This document shows positions 54,724-64,000 of a stretch of 64,000 nt of DNA, in pieces; positions within the stretch are counted from its first letter, which is position 1, and every line of letters begins with the position of its first letter. The translations under genes were made by a program, and so were the position numbers. Location of the stretch: contig JAHBZS010000023.1 in assembly GCA_019635285.1 (NCBI GenBank), forward strand, positions 1 through 64,000. Direction: 5' to 3'. The DNA is from Rubrivivax sp. (GTDB taxonomy: Bacteria > Pseudomonadota > Gammaproteobacteria > Burkholderiales > Burkholderiaceae_C). The notes under the pieces are model-generated. The model saw nothing but the letters and a program-made list of their open reading frames with translations. It ran no database searches and was not told the origin of the DNA.

Positions 54724-55423
54724 CGGTTCATCCCCGCGTGCGTGGGGAACACTCGGTCTTTTCCTCGATCACATCGCCGACGGTCGGTTCATCCCCACGT
54801 GCGTGGGGAACACGGCTGTGCTTTGCGACCGACCGGACGCTGTACCGGTTCATCCCCACGTGCGTGGGGAACACAGTTCCAGGTAGTCCGCGCTCGGCGT
54901 GGTGGACGGTTCATCCCCACGTGCGTGGGGAACACCCCATGTCCAGCGCCTGCAGGGTCTCGAAGACCGGTTCATCCCCACGTGCGTGGGGAACACGCCC
55001 CACAAGAACACGCCGGCATTGCTGCCTGGGGTTCATCCCCACGTGCGTGGGGAACACAAGGGCAGCAGCAACGGCGTGTGCTCGGCCATCGGTTCATCCC
55101 CACGTGCGTGGGGAACACCGCGCGCGCGGCGGGATCAAGCTTGGCGATGTCGGTTCATCCCCACGTGCGTGGGGAACACAAGCTGACGCGCCGCGATGGC
55201 CAGGTGTTCGCCGGTTCATCCCCACGTGCGTGGGGAACACACGATGCCGCCCTGGCGGCGACGCACGTAGAACGGTTCATCCCCACGTGCGTGGGGAACA
55301 CCTGCATCTCCGCGCCCCCGGCGGTGCCGTTGTCGGTTCATCCCCACGTGCGTGGGGAACACGTGGCCGGGTCGACCCGGACGGTGCGGACGTTCGGTTC
55401 ATCCCCACGTGCGTGGGGAACAC
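54724..55423 (-). CRISPR. Type I-E CRISPR array, 12 repeats and 11 spacers
   Basis: Twelve 29-bp repeats with strict 61-bp periodicity (starts at 54724, 54785, 54846, 54907, 54968, 55029, 55090, 55151, 55212, 55273, 55334, 55395) and 11 spacers of exactly 32 bp. The crRNA-sense repeat on the minus strand begins GTGTTCCCCACGCACG and ends GTGGGGATGAACCG; the stem is CCCCACG/CGTGGGG and the 8-nt handle ATGAACCG. The repeat at 54724 has one change (A to G, plus-strand 54736) and the one at 55029 a changed outer base (C to G). A degenerate repeat at the low-coordinate end marks it as leader-distal, so transcription runs minus, as for the cas genes. No leader precedes the cas1-side repeat. Confidence 0.98.
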
Positions 55424-55443: not shown

Positions 55444-55938
55444 CTACCCATTCCACTTCACGCCGAACTGCTGCGCCAGCAGCTGGTAGGTGCGGCGCAC
55501 ACGCGCACCTTCGATGCCACGCAGCTGATCGACGCTGCGGCGCGACGGCGGCTCCTCGCCGAAACGCATCGCGTACATCTTGCGTACCACCTTCAGGCGC
55601 AGGTCCTCGTCCAGCGCCAGCCGCGCCTGATACAGCAGCCGGTCCGAGCGCGCGCCGCCGGGCTGGCCGGCCGAATACAGCCGCACGCCGGCTTCGCCCA
55701 CCCACACCACCAGCGTGCCCACGCGCGCGGCCAGCGCCGCGGCGCGGTGCGACATGCGTGTGCCCGGCTCCAGCATGATGCAGGCCACTCCGCCCACGGG
55801 GATGTGCGTGCGGATGCCGGTCACGTCCACCACCACGAAGGCGCCGTCGAGCAAGTCGATCTCGCCGCGTTCGATGAACACCACCGACAGCCGGTCCTTG
55901 ATCGGGATCGGCTTCAGTGGCGGCAGCAGGCCGCTCAA
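55444..55938 (-). pseudogene. cas1: Truncated type I-E cas1
   Basis: 164 aa from TTG 55938 (TTGA overlap with the PIN gene stop). Excellent Cas1e N-terminal half: PLKPIPIKDRLSVVFIERGEIDLLDGAFV, DVTGIRTHIPVGGVACIMLEPGTRMSH, YSAGQPGGARSDRLLYQARLALDEDLRLKVVRKM, RRSVDQLRGIEGARVR. It stops at TAG right after GVKWNG, where intact Cas1e (about 300 residues) continues for about 140 more. One metal-ligand Glu (residue 143, E. coli E141) is kept; the His and Asp ligands (E. coli H208, D218, D221) are missing. No cas2 follows; the first repeat is 20 bp away. Almost certainly inactive for spacer integration. Confidence 0.92.
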
Positions 55939-56420
55939 CCGGGCGCCTCGTTTGCGGCCGCCAGCGCCTGCGAAACGGCAGCGTGGCTGAGGCGTTGGCC
56001 GCCGGCGCGCAGCTGCTCCACCAGCGGGCTGATGGCGGGCAGGTGGCCAGCGCGCTTGGCCAGCACCAGCACACCCAGCGTGCCGATGATGTCCAGGCCC
56101 AGCTCCAGCGCGCACTGCCGAGCCGCATGGTCATCGGCCAGCAGGCCGGCACCAATCTGAATCGCCCGCCCGATGGCCGCGCACTCACCGGGGTCGAGCC
56201 CGTCCCGGACGATGGGTTCGGCATCGCATGCCACCAACAAGTTCTGGTCGAGCGCGGCCTGGATGCGCAGCGTGTCGGCGTTGTCCGGCCGCGCCATGCA
56301 TTCGTCGAGCACGGCCGTGGGCACCTGCACCTGTACGAACAACTTCGGCAGCAGGGCCAGCAGGTCAAGCCGGCCCAGCGAGATCAGCGGCCCGGCATCG
56401 CTGACGACGATGCTGGCCAT
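55935..56420 (-). CDS. PIN-like DUF3368 protein (putative toxin) inside the cas operon
   Basis: 161 aa. VVSDAGPLISLGRLDLLALLPKLF carries the first PIN Asp, VPTAVLDECMARPDN the Glu, and the DPGECAAIGRAIQIGAGLLADDHAARQCALELGL segment holds the GExxAI and DD acidic motifs that complete a PIN nuclease site. DUF3368 proteins are commonly paired with UPF0175 antitoxins, as here (4-bp gap). Its stop overlaps the start of truncated cas1, so the pair is embedded in the operon between casE and cas1. Confidence 0.85.
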   Translation of the reverse strand: MASIVVSDAGPLISLGRLDLLALLPKLFVQVQVPTAVLDECMARPDNADTLRIQAALDQNLLVACDAEPIVRDGLDPGECAAIGRAIQIGAGLLADDHAARQCALELGLDIIGTLGVLVLAKRAGHLPAISPLVEQLRAGGQRLSHAAVSQALAAANEAPG

Positions 56421-56424
56421 GGCA

Positions 56425-56751
56425 CTACGGGCCGAAGGCGGCAAGCTCGCGCTCCAGTTCGCCGGGTTCCAGCCGGATGGTGGCGATGCCGCGCGCACCC
56501 AGCGCGTCAATCATCTCGCTATACGACAGCCCCGCAATACGGGCGGCCACGCCCAGGCTGATCTGCTGGCTGTCATACAACCGTGCCGCCAGTTCCAGGC
56601 GCACCTCGCTGGTGTCGATGTCGGCGCCGAGTGGCACGGCCAGCAATACCGGCTCGCCCTCATGGGTGACCAGCGAGGCCTCACCGCGAGCGGCATCGTC
56701 CAGCAGGCGCTGCGGCTGGCGGGAGAGGTCTTCAGTAGTGAGGGTGTGCAT
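56425..56751 (-). CDS. UPF0175-family antitoxin-like protein
   Basis: 108 aa from ATG 56751. The first half resembles a Phd-type operator-binding fold (LSRQPQRLLDDAARGEASLVTHEGEPVLLAVPL); the second half is the UPF0175 helix-rich motif (RLELAARLYDSQQISLGVAARIAGLSYSEMIDALGARGI). Likely antitoxin and DNA-binding partner of the adjacent DUF3368 PIN protein. Starts 31 bp after casE on the same strand. Confidence 0.82.
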   Translation of the reverse strand: MHTLTTEDLSRQPQRLLDDAARGEASLVTHEGEPVLLAVPLGADIDTSEVRLELAARLYDSQQISLGVAARIAGLSYSEMIDALGARGIATIRLEPGELERELAAFGP

Positions 56752-56782
56752 GGCGGGCTCCGGCGCTGTTCTCGATTCAAGC

Positions 56783-57607
56783 TTAAACGACCGGGCGTAC
56801 GAGCAGCAATCCGCAGCCGAAGGCCTTGGCTCTGCCGACACCCTGCACCAAGGCTTGGCGGAGCAGGTTGGGATCGAACACCTGGACTTCGCCTTCGTAG
56901 TCGATCGATGAAAACTGGAGCATCCCTCCGCCACGCGGCAGACGATGCTGGTAGTACGCATCCCAGCGCAAAGCGGGCCCGGGATCGTCGCTCCAGTAGT
57001 CGCCGCGCTCGCAGATAGTCAAACCCCATCGGGGCAGCCTGTCAAGCAGCCATGCGCGGGCGGCCTGGTCCACCAGTCGATCGAACTCGTCGCGTTGGGA
57101 GCGCGAAGGTTTCCAGCCCTTCACATGACCACAGGCCTTCTTGGCAGCCATGATGACATCGTGGAACTCGCGGCGGCCGTGGTGGGACTTGGGCGGTTTT
57201 TCGCTCATTGCCGCGCGGCGGGCGTTGTACTGCGCCAGGGCTTCGGACCCCAGTTCCTCCCGCGTGGCAGTGGTCGGGTTGGCACGCAGGCGGAAATGCA
57301 GGCGCATGCCGGTTTCGAGGTCCGGCGGATAGGGACGTGGGTGGATGTCCACGTGCAGGGCTCCGGCGACCGGCCTGGGCTCGCGCTTGGAAACCACGTA
57401 GTACTGCGGCAGCCCTCGCGGATCGCGTTCCGCGCGGAACACAAAGTCGCGTGGCCTTCCCTCACCGGGGAACAGCCGCCACAGCAATGCGTGCTCACGA
57501 TAGGCGTTGCCATGCATCAGATCGAACAGATGTGCCGGGTCGAGTCCGTCGCGCCGCACCGTGATGCGGCTGAACAAGTGGTGCGACGGGGAAGGGGTGC
57601 TTGTCAT
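56783..57607 (-). CDS. casE: CRISPR endoribonuclease Cas6e (CasE/Cse3)
   Basis: 274 aa from ATG 57607 (ATGA overlap with casD). HLFDLMHGNAYREHALLWRLFPG aligns with the E. coli catalytic region YQLHQGLWHLFP; His39 corresponds to H20. MRLHFRLRANPT is the second ferredoxin fold opening and ALVQGVGRAKAFGCGLLLVRPV the C-terminal Gly-rich loop. It cleaves the repeat hairpin just before the 8-nt handle and stays bound. It has an extra C-terminal-proximal insert compared with E. coli (199 aa). Confidence 0.95.
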   Translation of the reverse strand: MTSTPSPSHHLFSRITVRRDGLDPAHLFDLMHGNAYREHALLWRLFPGEGRPRDFVFRAERDPRGLPQYYVVSKREPRPVAGALHVDIHPRPYPPDLETGMRLHFRLRANPTTATREELGSEALAQYNARRAAMSEKPPKSHHGRREFHDVIMAAKKACGHVKGWKPSRSQRDEFDRLVDQAARAWLLDRLPRWGLTICERGDYWSDDPGPALRWDAYYQHRLPRGGGMLQFSSIDYEGEVQVFDPNLLRQALVQGVGRAKAFGCGLLLVRPVV

Positions 57608-59476: not shown

Positions 59477-60100
59477 TCAGGTCTCGGCCTTCGCCGTGGG
59501 TGAGGTGCGCGGGAACTCACCGAAGTAGGACAGGGCCCAGCGAACGCGGACGCGATCGGTGGCCACGATGGGCTTGTGCCCGCGCAGTTCGTCGATCCAT
59601 CCGAACAGATCGTTGGCCAGTTCGACGATGTGGATCGACTGCCCCGCGAGCATGTCCAGTGCGCGTCGCACCCGCAGGAACAGGTCTTCTTCCGTTTCGG
59701 CTGCCAGCAGCTGTTCGAATCGCAGCCGGCTGAGCAGCGGCCCAGCACCGCCCTCGCGTGGCTTGCCGAGTTGCGATGCAAACGGCCTGGCGGCGGCGCC
59801 TGCGGCATGATCGACCCGCGCGATCAACCCGACGACCAATGCGCAGGCGGCCGGCTCGGTGACCAGCATGGGCCTGCCGACTTCGCTCAGCGCGAAGATC
59901 AGACGGACACAGGCGGGCTGCAGCACCACGTCGCCTGGCGTCGTGCAACGGCGCAGCGACGCCCTGTCCCCTCGGCCGAGATCGTGGAAGCCTTTGCGGC
60001 GCGACCACGCTTGCGCATCGTCTTCGGCAATCGGCTGCAGACCGTGCCACCAGCGATGCAGCACCTTTTCCTGCTCCTGATTCAACCAGGAACTGCTCAT
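59477..60100 (-). CDS. casB: Cascade small subunit Cse2 (CasB)
   Basis: 207 aa from ATG 60100 (ATGA overlap with casA). ASLRRCTTPGDVVLQPACVRLIFAL, GLIARVDHAAGAAARPFASQLGK, PLLSRLRFEQLLAAETEEDLFLRVRRALDML and VRVRWALSYFGEF are the Cse2 motifs with basic residues that hold the displaced strand. All-helical. Confidence 0.94.
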   Translation of the reverse strand: MSSSWLNQEQEKVLHRWWHGLQPIAEDDAQAWSRRKGFHDLGRGDRASLRRCTTPGDVVLQPACVRLIFALSEVGRPMLVTEPAACALVVGLIARVDHAAGAAARPFASQLGKPREGGAGPLLSRLRFEQLLAAETEEDLFLRVRRALDMLAGQSIHIVELANDLFGWIDELRGHKPIVATDRVRVRWALSYFGEFPRTSPTAKAET

Positions 60101-61677
60101 GCGGCCTCCTTTGCGTGGCGTTGAACTTCGCTGCGCAAGGCCTTCATCGGTTTGGCGGCGCGCAACCATTTCTCCAGGTCGGCACGGGCATCGACCACGC
60201 GCTTCAAGTCGGCGCATTGTTCGTAGGCACCTTCGGCCCATTGATCGAACAGCCGCAGGGTGTGTTCTATGACCGCGGCGTGCCAGCGGCTGTACACAGC
60301 AGCCAGCGACGGGCCGTAGAGCGCCTGCTGTTGCTGCAGATCGTCAAGCATCGCGTAGAACGCGCCTTCGGTGCGCTGCCAGAAGCTCTGGGGCACTGCC
60401 GGGTCGTCCTTGTGGTCTTTGGGTCTGTCGAACCAGGCTTGCTTGACGTGGCTGCGCAGCAGCCCTGCAGCCTCCTGCGCCACCTCCAGCATTGCACGCA
60501 CGGCGCGGGCGAAGTCGTCGATCCTGTCCGGTGGCACCGCATGCACAGGCAGTGTCGTGTCGTACCAGCACCTGGCCTTCGCGTTGTCGAGATCGAAACC
60601 AAAAACCCACAGGCGCGGCGCACCCGTATGCTCCAGCGCCGACCAGCGTTCCGCCAGGTAGTGACGCACGACCTGTGCCGGCTCGGGCTGACGCTCGTTG
60701 CCCAGCATTAGCCCGAGCCAGTGGCGATAGCCGATCCCCCCCTTCTGTCCCTTGACGGACAAAGGCAGTTCTTTTTTCTTCGGGTCATGGTAGTAAGGTG
60801 TCAGCGGGTGCTCCCAGCCGAGGTAGTTCACGCCATAGTTCTTGGTGCTGAAGCACCTCAGCAGGCGGTCCGTCGCGGCGTTGCAGACACTGCAGCGGCC
60901 GGCTTCGGTGCTGGTCCAGTCCAGGCGGATGCGCCGGGGCATGCCCCAGTAGGCTTGCAAGGGATGGCCATCGGCCGGAGCGGTCTGGCCGTCCTTGCGC
61001 TCGCTGGTGCGGGTCGGACCCAGCCACGGCAGGATGGCGGCACGCTCGTTGCCGGCCTGCTGGCCCGCACGCTGCCGGATCGCAGTCTTCGGCATCACGT
61101 TGAGCCACAGCTTGTGCCACAGTGCCGCCGGCCTGCCAGGCGCTTCGGGTGGCCGGATCAGCGTCGTGAGCGGCCCGCCCCCACGCATCGACACGCGGTG
61201 GCCCACGCCGCCGGAGGGTGCATTGCATTGCAGGGCGAACAATGCTGTGGCTGCGCAGGCTGGGCAGAGGCCGGATTGGCGGGATGCCGGCCCGAAATAC
61301 AGGTTGATGTCCGAGCCCTGGTCGATCAGCAATTCACCGATGTCACGCAGCCGGAATTCAGGCGTCGGCTGCAGGTCCTGCATGAAGGCGGGGCCGTCTG
61401 CGTTGAGGATGAAGGCATCGGCCCAAGGGGCGAAAGCGGCTTGCAACTCCTCGGTGGTGGGAGGCGTCCGCCAGCGCTTCAGCCATTCATCCTCGTCCGC
61501 TGGCGCATAAGCGGTCTGCAGCAGGCCGATCAGGAACTGGTATTGCGCGCCCTGGAAGTCGGGGCGCGGCGCATCGAGATCAGACAGATCCAGGTTCGCA
61601 ACGCTGCTCGGATGTATCGGAAGGGCGACTCCTTCCATGTGCACTGCCTGCAACCAGTTGTCGTGTACCAGATTCAT
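60097..61677 (-). CDS. casA: Cascade large subunit Cse1/Cas8e (CasA)
   Basis: 526 aa from ATG 61677; GGGAG at 61686-61682 is the ribosome-binding site. Zinc-site cysteines C138, C141 (LCPAC) and C262, C265 (RCSVC) match the four-Cys site of Cse1. LNLYFGP-like strand INLYFGPAS, the L1 region near residues 120-150 and a C-terminal four-helix bundle (YSRWHAAVIEHTLRLFDQW) are present. Recognises the PAM and recruits Cas3. First gene of the Cascade unit; its promoter region holds a probable self-target of a crRNA-like RNA. Confidence 0.95.
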   Translation of the reverse strand: MNLVHDNWLQAVHMEGVALPIHPSSVANLDLSDLDAPRPDFQGAQYQFLIGLLQTAYAPADEDEWLKRWRTPPTTEELQAAFAPWADAFILNADGPAFMQDLQPTPEFRLRDIGELLIDQGSDINLYFGPASRQSGLCPACAATALFALQCNAPSGGVGHRVSMRGGGPLTTLIRPPEAPGRPAALWHKLWLNVMPKTAIRQRAGQQAGNERAAILPWLGPTRTSERKDGQTAPADGHPLQAYWGMPRRIRLDWTSTEAGRCSVCNAATDRLLRCFSTKNYGVNYLGWEHPLTPYYHDPKKKELPLSVKGQKGGIGYRHWLGLMLGNERQPEPAQVVRHYLAERWSALEHTGAPRLWVFGFDLDNAKARCWYDTTLPVHAVPPDRIDDFARAVRAMLEVAQEAAGLLRSHVKQAWFDRPKDHKDDPAVPQSFWQRTEGAFYAMLDDLQQQQALYGPSLAAVYSRWHAAVIEHTLRLFDQWAEGAYEQCADLKRVVDARADLEKWLRAAKPMKALRSEVQRHAKEAA

Positions 61678-61692
61678 CGTGCTCCCGGTCAA

Positions 61693-61698
61693 ACTATA
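61693..61698 (-). promoter_or_regulatory. Candidate -10 element for casA
   Basis: TATAGT on the minus strand, 15 nt before the casA ATG and directly beside the AAG PAM of the Cascade self-target. No convincing -35 box is seen at 16-18 bp, which fits a weak or activator-dependent promoter. A transcript from it would have a very short leader that just includes GGGAG. Confidence 0.4.
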
Positions 61699-61701
61699 AC
61701 G

Positions 61702-61725
61702 AAGCTTCGAAATTGTGTGTGAGCT
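61702..61725 (+). promoter_or_regulatory. Probable Cascade self-target (PAM plus protospacer-like site) in the casA promoter
   Basis: AAG (61702-61704), a functional type I-E PAM, is followed by CTTCGAAATTGTGTGTGAGC (61705-61724). Compared with the spacer-like segment 61768-61788, positions 1-5, 7-9, 11, 13, 15-17 and 19-21 agree (16 of 21); mismatches are 6, 10, 12, 14 and 18. Positions 6, 12 and 18 are flipped out in I-E Cascade and not read, so only 10 and 14 are true mismatches. Binding here would cover the region just upstream of the casA -10 and overlap the -10-like TACAAT (61725-61730) of the plus-strand RNA. Confidence 0.75.
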
Positions 61726-61734
61726 ACAATTAGA

Positions 61735-61820
61735 GGGTTCTCCGCAAGCATATGCGGAGATGACCCACTTCGCAATCGAGCGTGGGCTGGTTCTCCATAT
61801 TCGTGGGGATGTCGTTAACC
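61735..61820 (+). ncRNA. crRNA-like regulatory RNA (CreR/CreA-like mini-CRISPR) in the cas3-casA gap
   Basis: Two degenerate repeats in plus orientation. The first (61735-61767) has a perfect 8-bp stem TCTCCGCA/TGCGGAGA and ends ATGACCCA, agreeing at 6 of 8 positions with the array handle ATGAACCG. The second (61788-61820) contains TTCTCCATATTCGTGGGGATG, 16 of 21 identical to the array repeat, with a 6-bp stem including one G-U pair. Between them lies a 20-nt spacer-like segment, CTTCGCAATCGAGCGTGGGC (61768-61787), which matches a PAM-flanked site in the casA promoter. TACAAT at 61725-61730 is a good -10 box for a start near 61737. The 3' end overlaps the cas3 stop codon antisense. Expression is not shown. 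Confidence 0.75.
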
Positions 61821-64000
61821 CTGAGACCCCGTGCGCCATCCGGCCACGGGGTCATACAGGGCGACGACCGGACGCTGCCTGTTGTCGATCCCTTCGGCGC
61901 GCCACACGCCCGGTGCCTGTGAAGGGACCATGACCAGAAGCGTCGCGTACTTCAGCGCGCGGTGGCGGGTGCGCAGATCGTCGAGTGCTGCCGCGTCAGC
62001 AACCTCCCATGCCGGTGTGGCCGCGGCGAAAAGACGCGACGGCACCTTCACTGTGCTTGCGTCCCAGGGGTGCGGGTGGTCCGCCGCCCAGGGCCGCAGC
62101 GTGTGGCCTTCGCGGAGCAGCAGGACGACCTCACGACCTTCCTCGGCAAGACGAGTTGGCGTGTTCAACTCTTGATCCCATTCGCCGGCCTCCCAGGTGT
62201 AGCCCTGGTCGAGTTCGAGGCAGTTGCGCCGCGCCAGGGTGCGTTCGGCGTAGAGGTTGCCCTCCTGTTTCTCGCGCGACGGCAGCAGCGCCTTTGGTAT
62301 GTGCGCCTCCGCATCGGGGCCGTAGACGCTTTCGATCAGCAGACGCGCCTGGAGTGGCAACGCGATCGCGCCCGTTTGAAGAAGGATGCGCTGCGACAGC
62401 CACAGGCGCCCGGTGTCGGGGTAGATGGTTGCGGCGCGGCGAAATCTGCTTCGATACCACTGGGCTGGCGGATCGTCCGACCACTCCGGCGCGAACACGT
62501 GCAGCACTGGCGGCGGACGGCCCTCGGTTGCCGCCGGGTTGCATAGCGCGTCACGCACGTGCCGGTGCAGACGGCCTGCGCGCTGCATCAGCGCGTCGAT
62601 GGGGGCCATGTCGACGATCAGGACGTCGACGCAGTAGTCCAGCCCGACTTCCAGCACCGGAGAGCCCACGACGATCTGCCCACGACGCTGCTCGTGCCGG
62701 GACGCCTTGCCCAGCATGTCGAGAACCCGTGTCTCGATATCGAGCCGATCCGACAGCGCATAGCGGCTGTGGAACAGGGTGATGCGCTCAGGGTCAAGTT
62801 CAGGCAACGAGCGCAATGCCTCCCATGATTCGCGCGCGTCGTCCACGGTGTTGCGGATCCAGGCGACCGAGTTTCCCGCGAGTGCGGCCTCGCAGATCCT
62901 GGTCATCACCTCGCCTTCGTCGTGCAGGAAGGTTACCGGCACGCGGCGGCTGACTTCCGCTCGCGACGCGATCTCCATGCATTCGGGTTGAGCGTCCTTG
63001 CACTGATGCGTCAGCAGCGGATAGCGATCATCTGGTGGCAGTTCGATTCGATCCAGTTGCGCGCCCTGTCGGAAGGCATTGACCAGGCTCTCGCGCAGTT
63101 CGCCGGGCAGCGTCGCCGACAGCAGAACCGCGCTACCGCCTTGCCCTGCATGGGCCCTTAGCAGCGCACACAACAGCTCCGAGGTGTAGCCATCGAAACT
63201 GTGAATCTCGTCGATGACAAGCACCTTGCCTGCCATGCCCAGCAGGCGCAGCGACTGGTGCTGGGCCGGCATCACCGCCAGCAGCGCCTGATCGATGGTG
63301 CCGACGCCAAGGTCTGCCAGCAGCGCCTTCTTGTTCGAGTCTCCCAGCCAGGCGCTGCAGTTGCCGCTGGCGGATTCCTCTCCCGGGGCATACGCGCGGT
63401 CAGCCGGGGACGTAGGCAGCACCCGGAAGTCGTCCAGCAGGTGTCGGGAGCCATGTGCCAGCACCAGGTTCGGCCTGGGTGTGGCCTCGAATAGCCGCGT
63501 TTGTACCGGTCCGACGCGGCGGAACATCTGGTTGGCGGTGGCCATCGTCGGCAGTCCGAAATAGAGGCCGGCTCCAGGGTGCGCGGCCATCAGTCGATGG
63601 GCCAGGATCAACGCGGCTTCGGTCTTTCCGGCGCCAGTGACATCCTCCAGTACGAACAGCTGAGGCCCCTGACCGATCTTGATCTCCGCAACCAGTCGCT
63701 GCAGAGGCGTGAGTTCTCGAAGGTGATCGAACAACTGGTTCGGCGTCACGAATGCTCGGACCCGAGTCTCGGCGAGTCCCGTCGCGGCGATTGCGGCGTC
63801 GGCGCGCGGGCATGCGTACTCATGCCAGTAGCGCTCGACCGGCATGGGTTCGCTCACGTATCGGAAGTGATCCTGGTTTGAGCCGATCCAGTCGGCCAGG
63901 ACGCCGAGCCCGGCAACTCGCCAGGACGCTGAGGTGGCGCCTGCGTGCAGGGCGTCGGAAGAGAGCGTGGTTCCTTCAGGCGTCAGCAACAGTTGCGCTG
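61815..64000 (-). CDS. cas3: CRISPR helicase-nuclease Cas3, C-terminal part (N-terminus outside window)
   Basis: 728 codons are visible; the frame is open to the window edge and the HD nuclease domain lies beyond it. Helicase motifs: Q-like FDHLRELTPLQRLVAEI, Walker A VTGAGKTEAALIL, DExH box VLVIDEIHSFDGYT, motif III LLSATLPGELRE, motif V VGSPVLEVGLDYCVDVLIVDMAPIDAL, motif VI QRAGRLHRH. C-terminal accessory domain with TWEAGEWDQE. Unwinds and degrades DNA marked by Cascade. No frameshift in the visible part. Separated from casA by 137 bp containing the crRNA-like element, and probably transcribed from its own upstream promoter. Confidence 0.95.
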   Translation of the reverse strand, partial: AQLLLTPEGTTLSSDALHAGATSASWRVAGLGVLADWIGSNQDHFRYVSEPMPVERYWHEYACPRADAAIAATGLAETRVRAFVTPNQLFDHLRELTPLQRLVAEIKIGQGPQLFVLEDVTGAGKTEAALILAHRLMAAHPGAGLYFGLPTMATANQMFRRVGPVQTRLFEATPRPNLVLAHGSRHLLDDFRVLPTSPADRAYAPGEESASGNCSAWLGDSNKKALLADLGVGTIDQALLAVMPAQHQSLRLLGMAGKVLVIDEIHSFDGYTSELLCALLRAHAGQGGSAVLLSATLPGELRESLVNAFRQGAQLDRIELPPDDRYPLLTHQCKDAQPECMEIASRAEVSRRVPVTFLHDEGEVMTRICEAALAGNSVAWIRNTVDDARESWEALRSLPELDPERITLFHSRYALSDRLDIETRVLDMLGKASRHEQRRGQIVVGSPVLEVGLDYCVDVLIVDMAPIDALMQRAGRLHRHVRDALCNPAATEGRPPPVLHVFAPEWSDDPPAQWYRSRFRRAATIYPDTGRLWLSQRILLQTGAIALPLQARLLIESVYGPDAEAHIPKALLPSREKQEGNLYAERTLARRNCLELDQGYTWEAGEWDQELNTPTRLAEEGREVVLLLREGHTLRPWAADHPHPWDASTVKVPSRLFAAATPAWEVADAAALDDLRTRHRALKYATLLVMVPSQAPGVWRAEGIDNRQRPVVALYDPVAGWRTGSQG

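What the first reader, a model, noticed from the sequence alone, without database searches (positions are those of the whole stretch)
61702..61725. The crRNA-like spacer matches a PAM-flanked site in the casA promoter, with mismatches at the flipped positions
The site begins directly after AAG, a valid I-E PAM, and the handle boundary predicted from the repeat puts spacer position 1 exactly at the first protospacer base. Seed bases 1-5 and 7-9 match. Of five mismatches in 21 positions, three are at 6, 12 and 18, which I-E Cascade does not pair. Three independent predictions (handle end, PAM, 6-nt periodicity) coincide, which is hard to get by chance. Limited pairing would allow binding without Cas3 cutting, so Cascade would repress casA when free and relieve repression when depleted by anti-CRISPRs or titrated by crRNAs.
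Basis: partly seen in the sequence, partly recalled or inferred. Interest (0 to 1): 0.95.

Follow-up and report, generated by a model that had tools for sequence, protein, structure and literature searches.

The report
CRISPR guide targeting its own operon
A tiny CRISPR-like RNA gene beside a bacterial CRISPR operon carries a guide that matches the start region of that same operon in the way the CRISPR complex reads DNA, so the immune machinery probably throttles its own production; this kind of switch is already described and this is a clear new example.

Summary
A two-repeat mini-CRISPR lies between cas3 and casA of a type I-E operon. Its guide (from 61768) matches 61705-61725 directly after AAG (61702-61704): 16 of 21 bases, mismatches at 6, 10, 12, 14, 18. 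It is the best of 127,903 sites in the window; 0 of 20,000 shuffled guides equal it; AAG plus positions 1-5 and 7-9 occurs once in the genome.

Of 103 distinct casA upstream regions, 29 carry such a pair; no PAM was required, yet 25 of the 31 top-scoring sites follow AAG. Matching is about 96% at positions 1-5, background at 6, 12 and 18, and fades after 17. In orthologous pairs, guide and site change together at positions 1, 2, 4, 5, 7-10, never at 6.

This is what published CreR RNAs do (Liu et al. 2023, type I-E included; known to me only through reviews). Less expected: guide lengths form two classes, 20-24 and 30-33 nt, near the sizes for four and six Cas7 subunits. The window has the short class, beside a truncated cas1.

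The parts
61702..61704 (+). PAM, AAG
   Evidence: AAG recovered without PAM requirement in 25 of 31 top-scoring loci
61705..61725 (+). protospacer-like target site upstream of casA (the last base pairs with a base of the second repeat)
61735..61767 (+). first degenerate repeat of the mini-CRISPR, hairpin plus 5' handle ATGACCCA (61760-61767)
   Evidence: RNA fold (z -2.3; 3 of 200 shuffles fold as well)
61768..61787 (+). guide (spacer), 20 nt, short class
61788..61816 (+). second degenerate repeat; its own handle is decayed (ATGTCGTT)
   Evidence: (not within 9 mismatches of the array repeat)
61693..61698 (-). possible casA -10 element TATAGT, 3 nt beyond the PAM
   Evidence: read by eye; not found by the consensus scan nor preferred by my scoring
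61725..61730 (+). possible -10 element TACAAT of the mini-CRISPR transcript, abutting the target
   Evidence: read by eye; inference
60097..61677 (-). casA (cse1)
   Evidence: TIGR02547, 312 bits
61815..64000 (-). cas3, continuing beyond the window; HD domain present in the contig
59477..60106 (-). casB (cse2)
   Evidence: TIGR02548
58403..59443 (-). casC (cas7e)
   Evidence: TIGR01869
57604..58407 (-). casD (cas5e)
   Evidence: TIGR01868
56783..57640 (-). casE (cas6e), the predicted processing enzyme
   Evidence: TIGR01907
54724..55423 (-). CRISPR array, 12 repeats of 29 nt with 32-nt spacers (61-nt period)

Best explanation
The element is a cas-regulating crRNA-like RNA (CreR) of a type I-E system. 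Shown by sequence: a two-repeat mini-CRISPR with a Cas6e-type hairpin and handle, and a PAM-flanked partial match of its guide just upstream of casA. Inferred: the RNA is transcribed away from casA, cut by Cas6e and loaded into Cascade; Cascade then binds 61702-61725 through the PAM and positions 1-5, 7-9, 11, 13, 15-17 and 19-21 and blocks transcription of casA-E. The match is too limited for Cas3 destruction. Repression holds while free Cascade is plentiful and lifts when Cascade is taken up by ordinary crRNAs or disabled by anti-CRISPR proteins.
For: Exact anatomy. Best of 127,903 sites and 0 of 20,000 shuffled guides; single AAG+seed site in the genome. Population signal: with PAM required, 22 of 82 regions score 10 or more against 0 of 492 dinucleotide shuffles. 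Without PAM, 31 of 53 regions with a handle-hairpin candidate score 9 or more in their own region (25 AAG) against 163 of 5,406 in other loci's regions (4 AAG). Leave-one-out matching: positions 1-5 109 of 113; position 6 6 of 26, position 12 7 of 26, position 18 7 of 26. Orthologous groups: 14 compensated and 4 uncompensated differences at positions 1-5 and 7-10; at position 6, 0 of 5 compensated. Cas6e and all Cascade subunits present, Cas3 HD present. Published precedent for I-E CreR (passage in PMC13131331) and for binding with AAG plus 5 seed bases while more than 18 bp are needed for interference (abstract and passages of PMC5904413).
Against: No RNA, binding or expression data. The promoter is not established; across the 29 loci 18 targets overlap my best predicted promoter against 38% for random placement, a modest excess, and the window is not among the 18. 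PMC5904413 passages say that off-target Cascade sites in E. coli were transcriptionally inert and cite strong loss of promoter repression with 6 PAM-distal mismatches. The closest relative with a pair (Aromatoleum toluvorans, casA 59%) has its site on the other strand with AAA in place of the PAM, and L052, also casA-related, shows none. The five same-genus casA regions counted (casA 40-44% identical) show none. Compensated changes were not seen at positions 11-17 (0 of 28 differing cells).
Confidence: 0.85

Rival explanations
1. A decayed relic: the element once regulated casA, but the system is degenerating and the match is now without function.
For: cas1 is truncated and abuts the array; the repeats of the mini-CRISPR are degenerate and two mismatches (10, 14) lie at positions that normally pair.
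Against: 16 of 18 pairing positions and the PAM are intact; Cascade and Cas3 genes are intact frames; degenerate repeats are described as normal for such RNAs (PMC9458426 passage on creTA).
Confidence: 0.08
2. The main regulated promoter is that of the mini-CRISPR itself, or both divergent promoters at once, rather than casA alone.
For: The target abuts a possible -10 (TACAAT, 61725-61730) of the mini-CRISPR transcript and in 28 of 29 loci the mini-CRISPR runs divergently from casA.
Against: Neither promoter is mapped; the reviews describe cas repression.
Confidence: 0.05
3. CreA-like antitoxin guide controlling a toxin (CreTA or CrePA).
For: Same kind of guide; a UPF0175/DUF3368 pair sits in the operon.
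Against: The only matching PAM-plus-seed site in the genome is upstream of casA, about 5 kb from that pair.
Confidence: 0.01
4. Chance similarity, or a duplicated stretch without function.
For: Short, GC-rich genome.
Against: a duplication would not spare mismatches to positions 6, 12 and 18.
Confidence: 0.01

Closest known systems
CreR, cas-regulating RNAs from modulatory mini-CRISPRs (Liu et al. 2023, Cell Host Microbe, pmid 37659410; paper not held; described in PMC13131331, PMC12948488, PMC12737573)
   Same: Mini-CRISPR by the cas genes; partial complementarity to the cas promoter region; type I-E named among the systems.
   Different: I could not see which I-E loci or guide lengths the paper covers. 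Here the guide is 20 nt and the system lacks an intact cas1.
CreA of CreTA / CrePA (type I-B and others; PMC9458426, PMC12737573 passages)
   Same: crRNA-like RNA with degenerate repeats, PAM-flanked partial promoter match, Cascade as repressor.
   Different: Target is upstream of casA, not a toxin gene.
Long-form tracrRNA (tracr-L) autoregulation of Cas9 (recalled; SpyCas9 autorepression is mentioned in PMC13131331)
   Same: Effector represses its own operon through a natural guide; relieved by anti-CRISPRs.
   Different: Type II, a natural single guide, no mini-CRISPR.

Membership tests
CreR | mini-CRISPR of degenerate repeats associated with cas genes | tested here: met
CreR | guide with limited complementarity to a PAM-flanked site upstream of the cas effector operon | tested here: met
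CreR | the site lies in the cas promoter | tested here: inconclusive
   24-47 nt before the casA start codon, but no promoter called by consensus
CreR | complementarity too limited for interference | tested here: met
   16 pairs in 21 against the more than 18 bp reported for E. coli (abstract); inference from another species
CreR | Cas6 processing and loading into Cascade | not testable with these tools
   genes present
CreR | repression of cas genes, relieved by crRNA competition or anti-CRISPRs | not testable with these tools
   needs expression data
CreA (CreTA/CrePA) | guide targets the promoter of a toxin | tested here: not met
   single PAM-plus-seed site in the genome, upstream of casA

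The most novel reading that the evidence does not exclude
Type I-E cas-regulating RNAs come in two guide-length classes: one at ordinary spacer length and one about 12 nt (two Cas7 segments) shorter, which would assemble a smaller, four-Cas7 Cascade used for regulation. The window is of the short class, in a system whose adaptation module is broken and whose array abuts the cas1 fragment, so that cas genes and perhaps crRNAs hang on one autoregulated promoter.
Probability: 0.4. Interest if true: 0.65.

Novelty: new member of a known kind. Interest (0 to 1): 0.5.

Why it matters
It shows from sequence alone that CRISPR effectors are used as repressors of their own operons in many type I-E systems. 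It also gives a natural, evolved record of how Cascade reads DNA: AAG, seed 1-5, no pairing at 6, 12 and 18, and no constraint beyond about position 17. If the two guide-length classes hold up, nature uses the modular length of Cascade to separate regulation from killing, which can be tested directly with a 20-nt against a 32-nt guide.

Tried and rejected
Position-by-position covariation between the window and its closest relative with a pair (L008, Aromatoleum toluvorans): first noted as compensatory in my notebook, then rejected, because the L008 site is on the other strand and follows AAA; the two sites are not orthologous.

Finding the element by DNA similarity in plasmids gave nothing; Rfam at E up to 1 over 61500-62000 gave nothing. 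Fixed promoter overlap as proof of function was dropped: the excess is modest (18 of 29 against 445 of 1,160 random placements) and the window itself does not overlap my best predicted promoter. L009 has candidate repeats but no convincing site (score 8.1, GAG). The wide cross-locus control is not clean: 163 of 5,406 foreign pairs reach 9 and 26 reach 13, nearly all without AAG; I did not examine why.

Rows set aside before the count of 103: 12 duplicates, 8 loci without a usable casA start (L006, L029, L063, L065, L072, L132, L136, L137), 4 without an N-terminal match (L067, L087; L108, L110). Two of the 31 loci scoring 9 or more have a trinucleotide outside AAG, ATG, AAA, AAC, GAG, AGG and were left out of the 29; AAA and AAC were added to that list. 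Nine later loci are not in the counts: five repeat earlier regions and four are new (L140, L141, L143, L147); L143 shows a pair by eye, the other three show none by eye in what I printed, and were not scored. No cas2 search was run on the genome.

Full report
What is there. The window holds a type I-E operon on the minus strand: cas3, casA, casB, casC, casD, casE, a UPF0175 and a DUF3368 gene, a cas1 fragment and a 12-repeat array. Between cas3 and casA, on the opposite strand, lies a two-repeat mini-CRISPR: a hairpin with handle ATGACCCA, a 20-nt guide from 61768, and a second, decayed repeat. Folded alone, the RNA forms both hairpins (z -2.3, 3 of 200 shuffles as stable). The guide matches 61705-61725, right after AAG, with mismatches at 6, 10, 12, 14 and 18.

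Is it more than chance? In the window the site is the best of 127,903, PAM or not, and 0 of 20,000 (137 nt) and 0 of 4,000 (480 nt) shuffled guides reach its score. AAG plus positions 1-5 and 7-9 occurs once in the assembly, here.

Relatives. CasA relatives were taken from the genus (6 of 81 genomes with a match), family (15 of 399), order (17 of 399), class (25 of 369), another family of the order (16 of 297), the phylum (12 of 200), one small family (3 of 5) and named genomes (29 loci). The genome's family holds a Comamonadaceae bacterium and Allofranklinella, since loci of those named records recur as same-family genomes. After removing duplicates and unusable starts, 103 regions remained.

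In each region I looked for a handle with a hairpin before it, took the following bases as guide, and sought the best match nearby, ignoring positions 6, 12, 18 and 24. In a first pass with a PAM required, 22 of 82 regions scored 10 or more against 0 of 492 dinucleotide shuffles; at 9 or more it was 26 against 5. So the PAM is recovered from the data. Twenty-nine pairs are kept for the profile (25 AAG, 2 AAA, 1 AAC, 1 ATG); 28 of 29 mini-CRISPRs run opposite to casA.

The pairing profile. Each position was scored while left out of the selection: positions 1-5 match in 22/22, 22/23, 21/23, 22/22 and 22/23; position 6 in 6/26; positions 7-11 in 21/22, 21/22, 18/24, 20/22, 19/24; position 12 in 7/26; positions 13-17 in 19/24, 18/24, 15/26, 14/26, 13/26; position 18 in 7/26; positions 19-24 in 6, 5, 4, 11, 6 and 8 of 26. 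Positions 6, 12 and 18 are thus at the 25% expected of unpaired bases, and the match fades beyond 17. In E. coli off-target binding, position 6 still matched in 45% of cases (PMC5904413 passage), higher than here.

Co-change. In four groups with guide and site in the same places (L011/L016/L021; L018/L019; L092/L095; L074/L085; six comparisons, not independent), differences at positions 1-5 and 7-10 were compensated 14 times and not 4 times (position 3 twice, position 7 twice). At position 6 none of 5 was compensated, and at 11-17 none of 28. For the window's own pair no orthologous pair was found: L008 (casA 59%) has a pair on the other strand with AAA.

How it most likely works. CreR RNAs are described as crRNA-like guides that direct Cas effectors to the cas promoter by limited complementarity, in types I-B, I-E and V-A, with relief by crRNA competition and by anti-CRISPRs (passages and one section of reviews; the primary paper is not held). 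In E. coli, AAG with as few as 5 seed bases suffices for Cascade binding while more than 18 bp are needed for interference (PMC5904413 abstract and passages). The window's 16 pairs fall in between. Against a strong effect: the same paper reports that off-target binding was transcriptionally inert and cites strong loss of promoter repression with six PAM-distal mismatches. A promoter is not established at the site.

Guide length. The second repeat was placed by its hairpin and GTTC register, searching lengths 14-45. Lengths: 20 (10 loci), 21 (4), 22 (2), 24 (1), 30 (1), 31 (1), 32 (5), 33 (5); none from 25 to 29. Ordinary spacers in the window's array are 32 nt. In a type I-F1 study spacer length and Cas7 number follow L = 6N - 4, so 20 means four and 32 means six subunits (PMC7296934 passage); three to six Cas7 are reported with altered crRNAs in E. 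coli and T. fusca (PMC6828817 passage). In Haloarcula a 24-nt spacer repressed its target without interference (PMC10989794 abstract). In type I-E, however, 6- or 12-nt truncation slows but does not stop Cas3, so mismatches are probably also needed. The two classes do not differ visibly in pairing profile. Related loci are counted separately, so the distribution needs phylogenetic correction. My searches of the held library showed no account of two length classes, but they cover open-access papers only and not the primary paper.

Verdict. A new, very clear member of a known kind, CreR, with a population-level pairing footprint and a length pattern that deserve a look.

Noticed in passing
window 55444-56115 (-) and 54724-55423 (-): cas1 matches only positions 2-158 of the 269-position Cas1e model and its stop codon lies about 20 nt from the first array repeat; no room for the rest of cas1, cas2 or a usual leader. 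The genome search found only this and one weak hit on contig C35 (24.8 bits). The system looks interference-only, unless the assembly is wrong here.
   Followed up: partly
window 55935-56961 (-): A UPF0175 / DUF3368 gene pair, which looks like a toxin-antitoxin pair, sits between casE and cas1 inside the cas operon (the toxin-antitoxin reading is recalled).
   Followed up: no
29 casA upstream regions: Guide lengths of the mini-CRISPRs fall into 20-24 nt (17 loci) and 30-33 nt (12 loci) with none between, about two Cas7 segments apart.
   Followed up: partly
L009 (Stutzerimonas azotifigens): Close relative of L011 that keeps mini-CRISPR remnants with an altered first handle but seems to have lost the stretch that holds the target in L011; a possible natural loss of the switch.
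   Followed up: no
L109: The only one of 29 loci whose mini-CRISPR runs in the same direction as casA.
   Followed up: no
window 61725-61730 (+): A possible -10 of the mini-CRISPR transcript abuts the target site, so Cascade might also repress the guide's own gene.
   Followed up: no
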